From Planctomycetota bacterium (GTDB lineage Bacteria; Planctomycetota; Planctomycetia; Pirellulales; Pirellulaceae), in contig JAQCHP010000023.1 in assembly GCA_027619595.1 (NCBI GenBank), forward strand, positions 1 through 46,566: a stretch of DNA of 46,566 bases, in the 5' to 3' direction. The position numbers and the translations under genes were made by a program. Below the pieces are notes generated by a model. It had not been told where the DNA came from and made no database searches. It saw only the letters and a program-made list of their open reading frames with translations. Below are positions 20,791-28,857 of the stretch, piece by piece (position 1 is the first letter of the stretch; every line of letters begins with the position of its first letter).

Positions 20791-21282
20791 ATGCCCGACG
20801 GATTCCTAGGAACTCGCGGCTCACTGATGATCGATGTGGTTTTTGTGGCGATGTTTTTGGTGCTGCCGGTGCTGTACTGGAGCATTTACACCGCGCGCGT
20901 GGGGCGACATTATCCGTTCCATAAACGTTTGCAGTTGACCTTGGGGATCGTTCTGCTGGTCGCGGTTTCGGCATTCGAGTTGGAAATGCGGTTGTTTGGC
21001 TGGCAGCATCGGGCCGAGTTGTCGCCGTATTGGCGCGCCGGGCGGTGGAACGACGTAGTCGACGGGTCGCTCGCCGTGCACCTTGCATGTGCGATACCAA
21101 CTTTTTTCATTTGGGTTGCCGTGATCGTACGTGCCGTCCGAACGTTCCCGCGGCCGGCAGCTCCTAACACGCATAGCGGCAGCCACCGCATGTGGGGATG
21201 GATGGCTGCGATTGGCATGACCCTTACCGCCACTACCGGCTGGGTATTTTATTGGCTGGCTTTCGTCGCCAGCCCAATCTAA
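20791..21282 (+). CDS. DUF420-like four-helix membrane protein
   Basis: 163 aa from ATG 20791, after AGGGGA. Four hydrophobic helices are visible (about 13-32, 47-64, 92-113, 137-158), with His residues between and within them (PFHKRLQL, LAVHLACAIP). This resembles DUF420/YozB proteins, some linked to cytochrome oxidase assembly. The function is uncertain. The stop overlaps the convergent leuA stop (21279-21282). Confidence 0.65.
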   Translation: MPDGFLGTRGSLMIDVVFVAMFLVLPVLYWSIYTARVGRHYPFHKRLQLTLGIVLLVAVSAFELEMRLFGWQHRAELSPYWRAGRWNDVVDGSLAVHLACAIPTFFIWVAVIVRAVRTFPRPAAPNTHSGSHRMWGWMAAIGMTLTATTGWVFYWLAFVASPI

Positions 21283-22796
21283 CTGGCGATCTGATTGATG
21301 GCGTCCAGAATGGCCTTGAGCGTAGCTTCGACCGTGTCGGTCGACATGCCGCGTCCGCGATACGAACGGCCTTGAAAGTCGACGTCCAAATTGACTTCGC
21401 CGAGAGCGTCGTGCCCCAACGTAGCGCTGCGCACCGTATAGTCCCGACAAACCAACTTGTATCCAGTAATCTTTTCCACCGCCAGGAACGCCACATCGAC
21501 CGGCCCGTCGCCGTCCTCCAAGGTTTCATGGAATTGTTCCGATCCTCGTGCCAATGTGAGTTCCATGCGAGGCGCGATGCTGGAGCCCGACCGTACACAG
21601 AAATCGACCAGGCGCCATTCCCGTTCGGGTTGGTCATGGAGTTGTTGTTTAATGAGAGCTGCGATGTCGCCGTCGTAGATCTCCTTTTTCTTATCGGCTA
21701 ATAGCTTAAAGCGATCGAAAATCTCGTGCAATTGTTCACCGGTAAGATGGAATCCCATCGCTTTGGCTCGATCCGCCAAGGCTGCCCGGCCGCTGTGTTT
21801 ACCTAATACGAGGTCGGTGCGTTCGAACCCAACGTCCTCGGGCCGCATGATCTCGTATGTGGATGGTTCTTTCAGCATGCCGTCTTGGTGAATGCCTGCT
21901 TCGTGCGCAAATGCATTTCGACCAACGATGGCTTTGTTGCGTTGGACCTGCATGCCGGTGATTCCGGCCACAAGCCGACTGGTAGGGACGAGCCGTCGTG
22001 TCTCGATTTTTGTTTCGAAACGATAATAATCATGTCGAGTACGCAGCGCCATCACGATTTCTTCCAACGAGCAGTTGCCGGCACGTTCTCCGATGCCGTT
22101 GACGGTGCATTCGACCTGACCTGCACCTTCTTCCAGCGCCGCCAGGCTATTTGCGACGGCGAGACCGAGATCGTTGTGGCAATGGATACTAATAACGGCA
22201 CGGTCAATGTTCGGGACACGGTCTCGTAACTTGCGAATCACGCCACCCATATGTGCCGGCGTCGCGTATCCGACCGTATCTGGAATATTCACCGTGGTTG
22301 CTCCAGCGTCGATCGCAGCTTCGACAACTTGGCACAAGAAATCGACTTCGGTTCGAGCGGCATCCTCGGGTGAAAACTCCACGTCATCGCAGTACCGAGC
22401 GGCACGCTGAACTCCAGAAATTGCGCGGGCAATAATCTCTTCACGCGTCATGCGCAATTTGAATTCACGGTGGATGGCACTGGTCGCCAGGAATACGTGG
22501 ATTCTTGGCCGGTGAGCACTCTTTAGCGCTTCCCAGGCCCGGTCAATATCCTGTTCATTGCACCGAGCCAATCCGCAGATGGTGGCTCCCTGGCAGTGGA
22601 GTGCAATCTGCTGCACCGATTCAAAATCGCCCGGTGAAGCGATCGGAAACCCGGCTTCAATCACGTCAACTCCCAAGTCTACCAAGGCGTGCGCGATCTT
22701 TAATTTTTCGTCCAGATTCATGCTGGCGCCGGGTGACTGCTCGCCATCGCGAAGTGTCGTGTCGAACACAATGATGCGGCGATTCGTCGGTTCCAT
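21279..22796 (-). CDS. leuA: 2-isopropylmalate synthase
   Basis: First committed step of leucine synthesis: acetyl-CoA plus 2-oxoisovalerate gives 2-isopropylmalate. The protein is 505 aa, the usual bacterial length. The N-terminal TIM barrel begins with VFDTTLRDGEQSPGA (metal-binding Asp12 and substrate Arg), and ISIHCHNDLGLA supplies the metal-binding His pair. A linker and the C-terminal LeuA dimer/regulatory domain (about 385-505) are present, including the region for leucine feedback. Expression is probably controlled by the leader peptide and terminator just upstream. leuB lies separately at 27.8 kb. Confidence 0.96.
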   Translation of the reverse strand: MEPTNRRIIVFDTTLRDGEQSPGASMNLDEKLKIAHALVDLGVDVIEAGFPIASPGDFESVQQIALHCQGATICGLARCNEQDIDRAWEALKSAHRPRIHVFLATSAIHREFKLRMTREEIIARAISGVQRAARYCDDVEFSPEDAARTEVDFLCQVVEAAIDAGATTVNIPDTVGYATPAHMGGVIRKLRDRVPNIDRAVISIHCHNDLGLAVANSLAALEEGAGQVECTVNGIGERAGNCSLEEIVMALRTRHDYYRFETKIETRRLVPTSRLVAGITGMQVQRNKAIVGRNAFAHEAGIHQDGMLKEPSTYEIMRPEDVGFERTDLVLGKHSGRAALADRAKAMGFHLTGEQLHEIFDRFKLLADKKKEIYDGDIAALIKQQLHDQPEREWRLVDFCVRSGSSIAPRMELTLARGSEQFHETLEDGDGPVDVAFLAVEKITGYKLVCRDYTVRSATLGHDALGEVNLDVDFQGRSYRGRGMSTDTVEATLKAILDAINQIAS

Positions 22797-22816: not shown

Positions 22817-22856
22817 TAAAAAAAGCCCGGCAACCTAGGGGCCGGCTGCGGGGCTT
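22817..22856 (-). terminator. Attenuator terminator in the leuA leader
   Basis: On the minus strand, AAGCCCCGCAGCC pairs with GGTTGCCGGGCTT (13 positions, one mismatch, one G-U) around the loop GGCCCCTA, followed at once by a run of T. It ends about 20 bp before the leuA ATG and begins 28 bp after the leader-peptide stop. This is where translation of the leader could decide between termination and read-through. Confidence 0.85.
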
Positions 22857-22883
22857 GGCGGAATATAATGTTCACACACAGCA

Positions 22884-22943
22884 CTACCGAGGGCTAGTTC
22901 CCCGTCGCTTGAGTCGTAGAAGCAACCATGGTCGGGTTGGCAT
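22884..22943 (-). CDS. leuL: Leucine leader peptide of the leuA attenuator (19 aa)
   Basis: ATG 22943 to TAG 22884 encodes MPTRPWLLLRLKRRGTSPR. Four leucines lie within five codons (TTG CTT CTA CGA CTC), flanked by Trp and Arg, the hallmark of a leucine-sensing leader. It sits between a good promoter and a terminator hairpin just ahead of leuA. With scarce charged Leu-tRNA, a ribosome stalled at the Leu codons would favour an antiterminator and leuA expression. The peptide itself likely has no other function. Confidence 0.82.
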   Translation of the reverse strand: MPTRPWLLLRLKRRGTSPR

Positions 22944-23035
22944 GAATCCGCGCCTGTTGGGTAGAAGTTGAATTACAATGGAGAGGTGCTAGCGGTGTCG
23001 GAACCGCACAGCCCACACGACCTATTGGACATTTG

Positions 23036-23065
23036 AGTGTAGCTGAGCTCAAAAGGTTCGGTCAA
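23036..23065 (-). promoter_or_regulatory. Sigma-70-type promoter for the leuA transcript
   Basis: On the minus strand TTGACC, an 18-bp spacer, then TACACT (5/6 and 4/6 of consensus). The predicted start near 23029 gives a leader of about 230 nt containing leuL and the terminator. Confidence 0.55.
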
Positions 23066-23210: not shown

Positions 23211-23693
23211 ATGGAATTTGAAGTCAAACGACTAACAAAGCGATGTGCGACGACCGACCAGGAGCTGCGGGCCGGCGAGGTGTACTTCTCGGCGCTGGTG
23301 CAGCAGGGGGCGGAGGTCGTGCGTCAGGACTTTTGTTCTGAGGCTTGGCAAGGTCCTCCCACGGGTACGATCGGATGGTGGACAGGGACCGTCCCTAGTC
23401 TGGAGACCACAAGAACGCATTGGGCGCCGCAAGATGTCATGCTGCACCTCTTTGAAGAACTGGCCGATCAGCCCGATCAGGCTGACCTTCGGTATTTGCT
23501 GACACTCTTGATGATCCGGCGCAGGATCCTCCGCGTGCAGAATACCGAAAACGTCGGCGGATCTGAATTTTTGATCGTGCATTCCGCGAAGCTCGATCAG
23601 GACATACGAGTACAAGTCATCACGCCGTCCCCCGCACGTAAGCAGGTTATTCACGAATATTTGCAAAGATTGATTCTTGAACGCGTGGCCTAG
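23211..23693 (+). CDS. Conserved-looking hypothetical protein with paired cysteines
   Basis: 160 aa, no named family recognised. The N-terminus (FEVKRLTKRCATTDQELRAGEVYFSAL) with Cys12 and a second Cys in DFCSEAW looks like a small metal-ribbon or treble-clef start. The middle is helical (ADLRYLLTLLMIRRRIL), and a strand-rich end has EFLIVHSAKLDQDIRVQVI. It is soluble, with no signal peptide. Start ATG 23211 is the first in frame. Function unknown. Confidence 0.7.
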   Translation: MEFEVKRLTKRCATTDQELRAGEVYFSALVQQGAEVVRQDFCSEAWQGPPTGTIGWWTGTVPSLETTRTHWAPQDVMLHLFEELADQPDQADLRYLLTLLMIRRRILRVQNTENVGGSEFLIVHSAKLDQDIRVQVITPSPARKQVIHEYLQRLILERVA

Positions 23694-26475: not shown

Positions 26476-27111
26476 CTATCGTAGTTCCACCGGGCTACTG
26501 GCGGCTGCCATGAAGACCTTCCAGCTTTCATACTTGGGATGCTGGATATGTCGTGCGAGTAGTGGTCCTTGGTCAGGTTGCCGCGGTTGGTTTCTCAGCG
26601 TCATCGACGCTTCGCGGGGGGTGCGTCCTCCTTTGCGGGTATTGCAGGCCCGGCAGCAACACACAATGTTCTCCCAGCTCGTATCGCCTCCACGACTGCG
26701 CGGCAGAACGTGATCGAGGCTTAACTGCTGAGGCGGAAACCTGCGTCCGCAATATTGGCACTCATTGCCGTCCCGTGCGAAGAGGCTTCGGCGACTGAAG
26801 CGGAGCGATTGCCTTGGTAATCGGTCGAAACGCACCAATCGTACTACACGGGGAGCTTGCAGATCAAAGTTGACCGACCGGAGCCAGTCTTCGTCGGATC
26901 GCTTTTCCTCGCTTCGTAGCTCACTCATTTCCAGCCAGCCTTGGAAATCGTAATTCGCGTAAAGCCCGTCGCGAACCTCCAGGACTTCCGCGGCACTTCG
27001 GTAAAGCAGGGTCAACGCGCGGCGGATGTTAATGACGTGAATCGCAAGGTAATTGCGATTTAGCACCAGTACGCGTGCATCGAGCGCGGAGGGCGGTACG
27101 TCCTCGGTCAC
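26476..27111 (-). CDS. HNH endonuclease family protein
   Basis: 211 aa. The HNH fold covers about residues 108-170: zinc cysteines in CQYCGRRF, the catalytic SLDHVLPRSRGGDTSWENIV (first His of the HNH motif, then Asn), and CRACNTRKGG with the second Cys pair. The N-terminal part (LNRNYLAIHVINIRRALTLLY) is typical of a widespread bacterial HNH group of unclear role. No toxin, intein or mobile-element partner is adjacent. The C-terminus (PKYESWKVF) is also family-typical. Confidence 0.88.
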   Translation of the reverse strand: MTEDVPPSALDARVLVLNRNYLAIHVINIRRALTLLYRSAAEVLEVRDGLYANYDFQGWLEMSELRSEEKRSDEDWLRSVNFDLQAPRVVRLVRFDRLPRQSLRFSRRSLFARDGNECQYCGRRFPPQQLSLDHVLPRSRGGDTSWENIVCCCRACNTRKGGRTPREASMTLRNQPRQPDQGPLLARHIQHPKYESWKVFMAAASSPVELR

Positions 27112-27683: not shown

Positions 27684-27774
27684 CATCCCTTCCGTCGCGG
27701 CTCTTTCCCACGTACAATCCCCGGTCTGGTGGGTTTGTGGATTGCTTCGTGTTTTCGCGTGGGAGGGGACGGGC

Positions 27775-28857
27775 GTGAGTCAACAGAAGATGCAGATTGC
27801 GGTCATTGGTGGCGACGGTACGGGACCTGAAGTAACTCGCGAGGCCTTAAAGGTCTTGAATGCCATTTCCCAACGCGATGGCTTCACCTACGAGACGACC
27901 GATTTTGATTTTGGTGGCGAGCGTTACTTGCGCACCAAGGAAACTCTCCCTGTCGGCGCAGTCGATCAATTGCGTAAGTTCGATGCGATATTCTTGGGGG
28001 CCGTAGGGCACCCTGACGTGGCGCCGGGAATTTTAGAGAAGGGACTGCTACTCGAATTGCGGTTCCAACTGGATCAATACATTAATCTGCGTCCTGTCAA
28101 GTTGTATCCGGGCGTTGAGACCCCTTTAGCGAATAAGAAGCCGCAGGACATCGATTTCGTTGTAGTGCGCGAGAATACCGAAGATCTCTACTGCGGCGTG
28201 GGAGGGTTTCTCAAGAAGCATACTGCCGACGAGGTTGCCACGCAGTCGGCAGTGTACACTCGCAAAGGTTGTGAACGATGTATTCGATGGGCTTTCGATT
28301 TCACACGACGTCGCAATAATCCCAAGGGGAAGATGCTCACCTTGGTGGCCAAAACGAATGTCCTTACCTTCGGCCACGATCTGTGGTGGCGAACCTTTCA
28401 GGAAGTTGCCAAAGAATTCCCTGATGTGAAGGCCGATTACAATCACGTTGACGCTTGCTGTATGTGGATGGTGAAAAATCCAGAATACTACGACGTCATC
28501 GTGACCACGAACATGTTCGGCGACATCATTACCGATCTAGGTGCCATGATTCAGGGCGGGATGGGGGTCGCGGCCGGTGGTAATATTAATCCAGATCCCG
28601 GTGGTACCAGCATGTTTGAGCCGATGGGTGGCAGTGCTCCGAAATATACCGGCCAAAATGTTATCAACCCGATTGCGGCCATTGGTGCCATGGGGATGCT
28701 GCTGCAGCACACCGGGCACGCAGCGTCCGGCGACCGTGTCTTACGGGCTGTGGAACATGTCACCGGTACGAAAATGAAGGGACAGGCAGCCGGCAAGATG
28801 GGGTACAGCACGACTCAGGTCGGCGATCTCGTTGTGGCTGCTTTGAGCGAGGTCTAA
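27775..28857 (+). CDS. leuB: 3-isopropylmalate dehydrogenase
   Basis: 360 aa from GTG 27775, chosen because GGGAGGGG lies 5-12 bp upstream; the alternative ATG 27787 is less well placed. Beta-decarboxylating dehydrogenase family. VIGGDGTGPEVTREAL forms the N-terminal motif, RENTEDLYCGVGG the substrate loop, and NMFGDIITDLGAMIQGGMGVAAGGNI the conserved metal-binding segment. MFEPMGGSAPKYTGQN lies near the NAD site, where LeuB proteins usually have a variant of FEPVHGSAP. Isocitrate or tartrate dehydrogenase is less likely but not excluded. It acts with LeuA in leucine synthesis, but leuCD are not in the window. Confidence 0.85.
   Translation: MSQQKMQIAVIGGDGTGPEVTREALKVLNAISQRDGFTYETTDFDFGGERYLRTKETLPVGAVDQLRKFDAIFLGAVGHPDVAPGILEKGLLLELRFQLDQYINLRPVKLYPGVETPLANKKPQDIDFVVVRENTEDLYCGVGGFLKKHTADEVATQSAVYTRKGCERCIRWAFDFTRRRNNPKGKMLTLVAKTNVLTFGHDLWWRTFQEVAKEFPDVKADYNHVDACCMWMVKNPEYYDVIVTTNMFGDIITDLGAMIQGGMGVAAGGNINPDPGGTSMFEPMGGSAPKYTGQNVINPIAAIGAMGMLLQHTGHAASGDRVLRAVEHVTGTKMKGQAAGKMGYSTTQVGDLVVAALSEV

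What the first reader, a model, noticed from the sequence alone, without database searches (positions are those of the whole stretch)
22817..23065. Leucine-sensing attenuator before leuA in a planctomycete-like genome
Seen in the sequence: promoter TTGACC-18-TACACT, a 19-aa leader with four Leu in five codons (WLLLRL), a stop 28 bp before a 13-position terminator hairpin with a T run, then leuA 20 bp later. Known: ribosome-mediated attenuation of leu genes is best described in Proteobacteria and Actinobacteria. Inferred: the same mechanism works here. Mixed leucine codons (TTG, CTT, CTA, CTC), none repeated, suggest that more than one tRNA(Leu) is sensed.
Basis: partly seen in the sequence, partly recalled or inferred. 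Interest (0 to 1): 0.72.

Follow-up and report, generated by a model that had tools for sequence, protein, structure and literature searches.

The report
Leucine attenuator before planctomycete leuA
A short leucine-rich open reading frame followed by a transcription stop signal sits just before the first leucine-making gene; relatives across planctomycetes carry the same kind of leucine sensor, although this genome's copy is an unusual, stripped-down version whose switch still needs an experiment.

Summary
In detail: promoter TTGACC-18-TACACT, ORF MPTRPWLLLRLKRRGTSPR*, a 12-pair hairpin plus T7, then leuA. Of 136 distinct leuA upstream regions (window plus order Pirellulales), 105 have an intrinsic terminator after a leucine-rich short ORF (median 7 Leu in 19 codons). 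CUA makes up 24% of their Leu codons against 2% in leuA. In most, the stop codon lies inside a strand (GGCC-n-UAG-GG) that can pair with the terminator's 5' arm: paired in 95/105 with the ribosome on the Leu codons, in 14/105 with it at the stop. The same arrangement appears in 15 of 20 upstream regions from other orders of the class. The window's copy differs: 4 Leu, and an antiterminator no better than chance. Its core PTRPWLLLR matches a second, previously undescribed leuA-linked leader of Pirellulales ([ST]R[AS]xL[LVA]L before a covarying hairpin) that other genomes carry after the terminator; of 55 such loci only the window has a terminator after it. Most likely a Leu-responsive attenuator built on a leader-2-like peptide. 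Leu response is untested.

The parts
23036..23065 (-). Promoter TTGACC-18-TACACT
   Evidence: Consensus scan 9 of 12; the same TTGAC-16/19-box arrangement before 91 of 105 leaders
22884..22943 (-). Leader ORF MPTRPWLLLRLKRRGTSPR* with Leu codons TTG, CTT, CTA, CTC
   Evidence: Translation; 4 Leu in 5 codons in 1% of shuffles; core PTRPWLLLR scores as a leader-2 peptide; DNA profile p 0.0045
22904..22926 (-). Possible protector hairpin GUUGCUU/AAGCGAC that involves the first Leu codons (segments 1:2)
   Evidence: In the minimum-energy fold, but no better than shuffles (p 0.35)
22900..22908 (-). Possible antiterminator strand (GCgaCGGGG) that can pair with CCCCGcaGC of the terminator's 5' arm
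   Evidence: Forms in silico when the ribosome stands on the first Leu codons, not at the stop; not better than shuffles
22818..22856 (-). Intrinsic terminator: 12-pair stem, loop of 8, T7
   Evidence: terminators before leuA in relatives
21279..22796 (-). leuA, 2-isopropylmalate synthase, the regulated gene
   Evidence: NCBIfam TIGR00973 and NF002086 above curated cut-off

Best explanation
The stretch is a ribosome-mediated, leucine-sensing transcription attenuator of leuA. Transcription starts at the conserved promoter (inferred). A ribosome translates the 19-codon leader. When Leu-tRNA is plentiful it reaches the stop codon, covers the segment that could pair with the 5' arm of the terminator, the terminator forms and transcription ends before leuA. 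When Leu-tRNA is scarce the ribosome waits on the Leu codons, the downstream strand pairs with the terminator's 5' arm, and RNA polymerase reads into leuA. Shown by sequence: the parts, their order, their conservation in the clade, and the antiterminator in relatives. Inferred: translation, stalling and Leu dependence. In this genome the ancestral Leu-rich leader appears to have been lost, and a peptide of the kind that relatives carry as a second leader stands in front of the terminator.
For: A terminator lies between promoter and gene with no upstream gene on that strand to end: the neighbouring ORF 23211-23693 runs the other way. 105 of 136 distinct leuA upstream regions have terminator plus Leu-rich ORF; 102 of 105 exceed the 95% level of shuffles; Leu is 37% of residues against 6% for I+V+F together, so it is not a generic hydrophobic peptide. 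CUA 24% against 2.1% in leuA. Antiterminator: 5' arm paired upstream in 95/105 (Leu stall) against 14/105 (stop); shuffled spacers give 59% against 90% real; self pairing beats non-self pairing, p 3e-7. In the window the antiterminator pairing forms in silico at the Leu codons and is gone at the stop codon. 15 of 20 upstream regions from other orders of the class show the same arrangement.
Against: The window's own antiterminator and protector pairings are not better than shuffles. Only four Leu codons. No close relative of this genome is held (its genus is represented only by itself), so the window's own leader cannot be tested for codon-level conservation. The leader's Shine-Dalgarno sequence is weak (sequence). 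No expression data.
Confidence: 0.74

Rival explanations
1. The window's leader is simply a weak, Leu-poor member of the ordinary Leu-rich leader-1 family (still an attenuator), and its likeness to leader 2 is chance.
For: Other leader-1 copies are also compact and Leu-poor (L034, L196, L199, L207); the stop-to-stem gap of 27 nt is within the leader-1 range; the stem AAGCCCCGCAGCC resembles leader-1 terminators.
Against: Flanks of L-x-L score 9.6 bits; the best of 104 leader-1 peptides scores 2.8; chance 9e-5 per position. Shuffled window peptide p 5e-5. DNA profile best at the same register, p 0.0045. Position -129 fits leader 2 (three other leader-2 copies at -126 to -129), not leader 1 (median ATG at -311).
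Confidence: 0.22
2. The attenuator is decayed: the terminator lowers leuA expression constitutively and the leader no longer senses leucine.
For: The antiterminator is not better than chance; few Leu codons; the leader-2 hairpin is missing.
Against: Terminator, promoter and ORF are all intact; a terminator 21 nt before a biosynthetic gene without relief would be costly; the pairing still changes with ribosome position in silico.
Confidence: 0.17
3. Leucine control by another RNA device (T-box, or an actinobacterial-type LEU element that hides the leuA ribosome-binding site).
For: Regulation of leuA at the RNA level by such devices is described in other phyla (PMC1262725).
Against: No Rfam family reaches its threshold in the window; eight relatives searched permissively gave only a tRNA and one sub-threshold match to an unrelated sRNA family. 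Leader-2 core of relatives does not pair with the leuA start region better than non-self.
Confidence: 0.03

Closest known systems
Ribosome-mediated attenuators of leu/trp/his operons of Proteobacteria (E. coli leuL type)
   Same: Promoter, short ORF with codons of the end product, terminator before the first biosynthetic gene, competing antiterminator; a possible 1:2, 2:3, 3:4 arrangement in the window.
   Different: In relatives the antiterminator strand straddles the leader's UAG stop codon (GGCC-n-UAG-GG); many genomes carry a second Leu-x-Leu ORF with a hairpin between terminator and leuA. Comparison with E. coli rests on general knowledge.
LEU element of Actinobacteria (PMC1262725)
   Same: Leader ORF with Leu codons upstream of leuA.
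   Different: There a pseudoknot with a base stem pairs the Leu codons with the leuA ribosome-binding site and no classical terminator is described; here there is a terminator, and no such pairing was found for leader 2.
Candidate attenuators of leuS and trp in Streptomyces/Corynebacterium (PMC1262725)
   Same: Leader ORF, antiterminator and terminator predicted by comparison, with complementary triples.
   Different: Other genes and phylum; no second leader described in the passages read.
T-box leaders
   Same: tRNA-responsive transcription control of amino-acid genes (general knowledge).
   Different: No leader ORF needed; no T-box found.

Membership tests
Classical ribosome-mediated Leu attenuator | Short translatable leader ORF with clustered Leu codons upstream of a Leu gene | tested here: met
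   4 Leu in 5 codons in 1% of shuffles; clade-wide Leu-rich leaders
Classical ribosome-mediated Leu attenuator | Intrinsic terminator between leader ORF and structural gene | tested here: met
Classical ribosome-mediated Leu attenuator | Competing antiterminator whose formation depends on ribosome position | tested here: inconclusive
   Met in relatives (95/105 against 14/105; self against non-self p 3e-7); in the window it forms in silico but is not better than shuffles
Classical ribosome-mediated Leu attenuator | Expression rises when Leu-tRNA is scarce; Leu codons required | not testable with these tools
   Needs a reporter or RNA-seq
Pirellulales leader 2 (leuA-linked L-x-L ORF with hairpin, described here) | Peptide motif [ST]R[AS]xL[LVA]L | tested here: met
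   PTRPWLLLR (P in place of A/S) scores 19.0 bits, above the family median 16.6; flank-only p 9e-5
Pirellulales leader 2 (leuA-linked L-x-L ORF with hairpin, described here) | Hairpin a few nt after the last Leu codon | tested here: not met
   Profile match only 2.2 bits, E 0.64; no such stem in the sequence. So described as leader-2-like, not filed as a member
Actinobacterial LEU element | Leader codons pair with the leuA ribosome-binding region | tested here: not met
   Tested on leader 2 of relatives: self -15.5 against non-self -15.5 kcal/mol, p 0.87
T-box | Rfam T-box covariance match | tested here: not met
   Window, gathering threshold, no match; eight relatives, E up to 1, none to a T-box

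The most novel reading that the evidence does not exclude
Many Pirellulales run leuA through two leucine-codon leaders in series: a classical attenuator (leader 1 plus terminator) and a second, order-specific ORF with invariant Leu-x-Leu codons directly before a covarying hairpin without a U tract, which senses leucine by a mechanism not yet described; the window lineage lost the first and coupled the second peptide to an intrinsic terminator.
Probability: 0.4. Interest if true: 0.7.

Novelty: new member of a known kind. Interest (0 to 1): 0.52.

Why it matters
No description of leucine attenuation in Planctomycetota turned up in the open-access papers searched. Its spread through the class implies that transcription and translation are coupled in bacteria whose cell plan has often been called unusual, and offers a direct genetic test of that coupling. 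The second, order-specific Leu-x-Leu leader is a new regulatory element with no assigned mechanism.

Tried and rejected
Element 2 (leader 2) as an interspersed repeat: rejected, profile hits in whole genomes of the order lie only upstream of leuA; weak hits outside the order are not near leuA. Leader 2 hiding the leuA start by base pairing: not supported. Leader-2 hairpin pairing with downstream sequence: weaker than shuffled. Leader-2 hairpin as an intrinsic terminator: no T run in any copy. Leader 2 as a sigma-54 promoter: spacing of the GG and GC elements does not fit (by eye, from sequence). Known Rfam family: none. Leu-rich leaders as signal peptides: rejected, almost no Ile, Val or Phe, and rare CUA enriched.

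Full report
Observation. The stop-to-stem gap is 27 nt, not 28. leuA is a bona fide 2-isopropylmalate synthase. The terminator segment is at least as stable as all but 1 of 200 shuffles. Four Leu in five codons arises in 1% of shuffles, but a plain Leu-richness score gives only p about 0.1, so the window alone would be weak evidence.

Relatives. leuA was found in 59 of 60 related genomes, in 187 of 241 genomes of the family at a very strict cut-off, and in named records of Pirellulales such as Rhodopirellula, Neorhodopirellula, Stieleria and Roseiconus. In 136 distinct upstream regions, 105 have a terminator preceded by a Leu-rich ORF, here called leader 1. Examples: MNKNLSSLLPLLLLALSGPRP, MHQNLLLPLLLLLLADDRP, MPCISLLPLLLLTGLRP. 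Median 7 Leu in 19 codons; 102 of 105 exceed the 95% level of dinucleotide shuffles, and reverse-complement controls look like shuffles. Leu is 37% of residues while Ile, Val and Phe together make 6%. CUA is 24% of leader Leu codons against 2.1% in leuA itself. A conserved promoter precedes 91 of 105.

Switch in relatives. 75 of 105 leader-1 ORFs end in UAG, in the context GGCC-n-UAG-GG. This strand is complementary to the 5' arm of the terminator (CCCC-n-GGCC). Folding the RNA that would be free with the ribosome on a middle Leu codon pairs at least half of the 5' arm upstream in 95 of 105; with the ribosome at the stop, in 14. Shuffled spacers reach 59% against 90%. Leaders pair better with their own terminators than with those of others (54 of 75, p 3e-7; related sequences are not fully independent). 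In 15 of 20 upstream regions from other families of the class a terminator follows a Leu-rich ORF. This is the anatomy of classical ribosome-mediated attenuation, with the stop codon set inside the antiterminator strand.

A second leader. Between the leader-1 terminator and leuA about half of the loci carry another element. A covariance model of it hits only upstream of leuA in 20 whole genomes and gives 56 matches in 100 loci, a few of them reverse-strand matches to the near-palindromic hairpin. It lies in an ORF: 52 of 52 copies (one locus counted twice) have an in-frame ATG in the L-x-L frame, against 6 and 9 in the other frames. The core is [ST]R[AS]xL[LVA]L; the outer two leucines are invariant while their codons vary (TTG, CTG, CTC; TTG, CTT, CTA, CTG), and the Arg codon is AGG in 29 of 42 although AGG is 2% of Arg codons in leuA. 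A hairpin follows a few nt later, with 95.5% of pairs formed and compensatory changes beyond shuffles. There is no T run. Pairing with the leuA start was not supported, and hits near leuA are confined to the order. Its mechanism is open.

The window's leader. The window lacks the strong Leu run and the GGCC-n-UAG-GG motif. Its core PTRPWLLLR scores 19.0 bits on the leader-2 profile (family median 16.6; best leader-1 peptide 12.3; shuffled window peptide p 5e-5). On flanks alone it scores 9.6 against at most 2.8 for leader 1. A scan of all L-x-L stretches in all three sense-strand frames returned three missed leader-2 copies (L155, L154, L109) and the window as the top four, at -126 to -129. 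A DNA profile peaks at the same register (p 0.0045). These tests followed the noticing of the likeness and share data, so they are not independent. The leader-2 hairpin is absent, so the leader is called leader-2-like rather than a member. Among 55 leader-2 loci only the window has a terminator after it. A plausible history is loss of leader 1 with its terminator and coupling of the second peptide to a terminator; the route cannot be settled without close relatives.

Mechanism in the window. Four segments can be drawn: 1, GUUGCUU over the first Leu codons; 2, AAGCGACGGGG; 3, the 5' arm CCCCGCAGC; 4, the 3' arm. With the ribosome on the first Leu codons segment 2 pairs with 3; at the stop codon no upstream pairing with 3 remains and the terminator forms. 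None of these extra pairings beats shuffles, so for this copy the switch is plausible rather than shown.

Verdict. Observation confirmed, interpretation partly supported and extended: leucine attenuation of leuA is widespread in the class, the window holds a divergent version, and a second Leu-x-Leu leader with a hairpin appears to be new. Literature searches in the held library found no earlier description for planctomycetes; the closest described cases are the actinobacterial leader and LEU elements (PMC1262725).

Noticed in passing
Relatives, e.g. L026, L070, L101, L129 (between leader-1 terminator and leuA): Second conserved ORF with [ST]R[AS]xL[LVA]L and a covarying hairpin without T run, found only upstream of leuA in Pirellulales; mechanism unknown.
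   Followed up: partly
L077 and L081, leader 1: The leader-1 stop UAG has become CAG, so the ORF runs four codons further (...TGHRPQGTA*), a natural test of the stop-codon position.
   Followed up: no
G040 contig C241, 16869-20368 (L059, L061): Two leuA copies in opposite orientation with mirrored upstream elements: an inverted duplication or an assembly artefact.
   Followed up: no
window 27757-28854 (+): leuB-type 3-isopropylmalate dehydrogenase about 5 kb from leuA on the other strand; its upstream region was not examined for a leader.
   Followed up: no
L034, L196, L199, L207: Compact leaders with few Leu codons and a terminator 34-86 nt before leuA, suggesting repeated weakening of the attenuator in the family.
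   Followed up: partly
L098 (record titled Alphaproteobacteria bacterium PRO23) and several records titled Candidatus Kuenenia: Metagenome records whose titles name other groups but carry leuA 69-74% identical to the window's; L098 also has both planctomycete leaders. The labels are probably wrong.
   Followed up: no
window 26476-27111 (-): HNH-nuclease-like protein with partial similarity to IscB and Cas9 profiles, below curated cut-offs.
   Followed up: no
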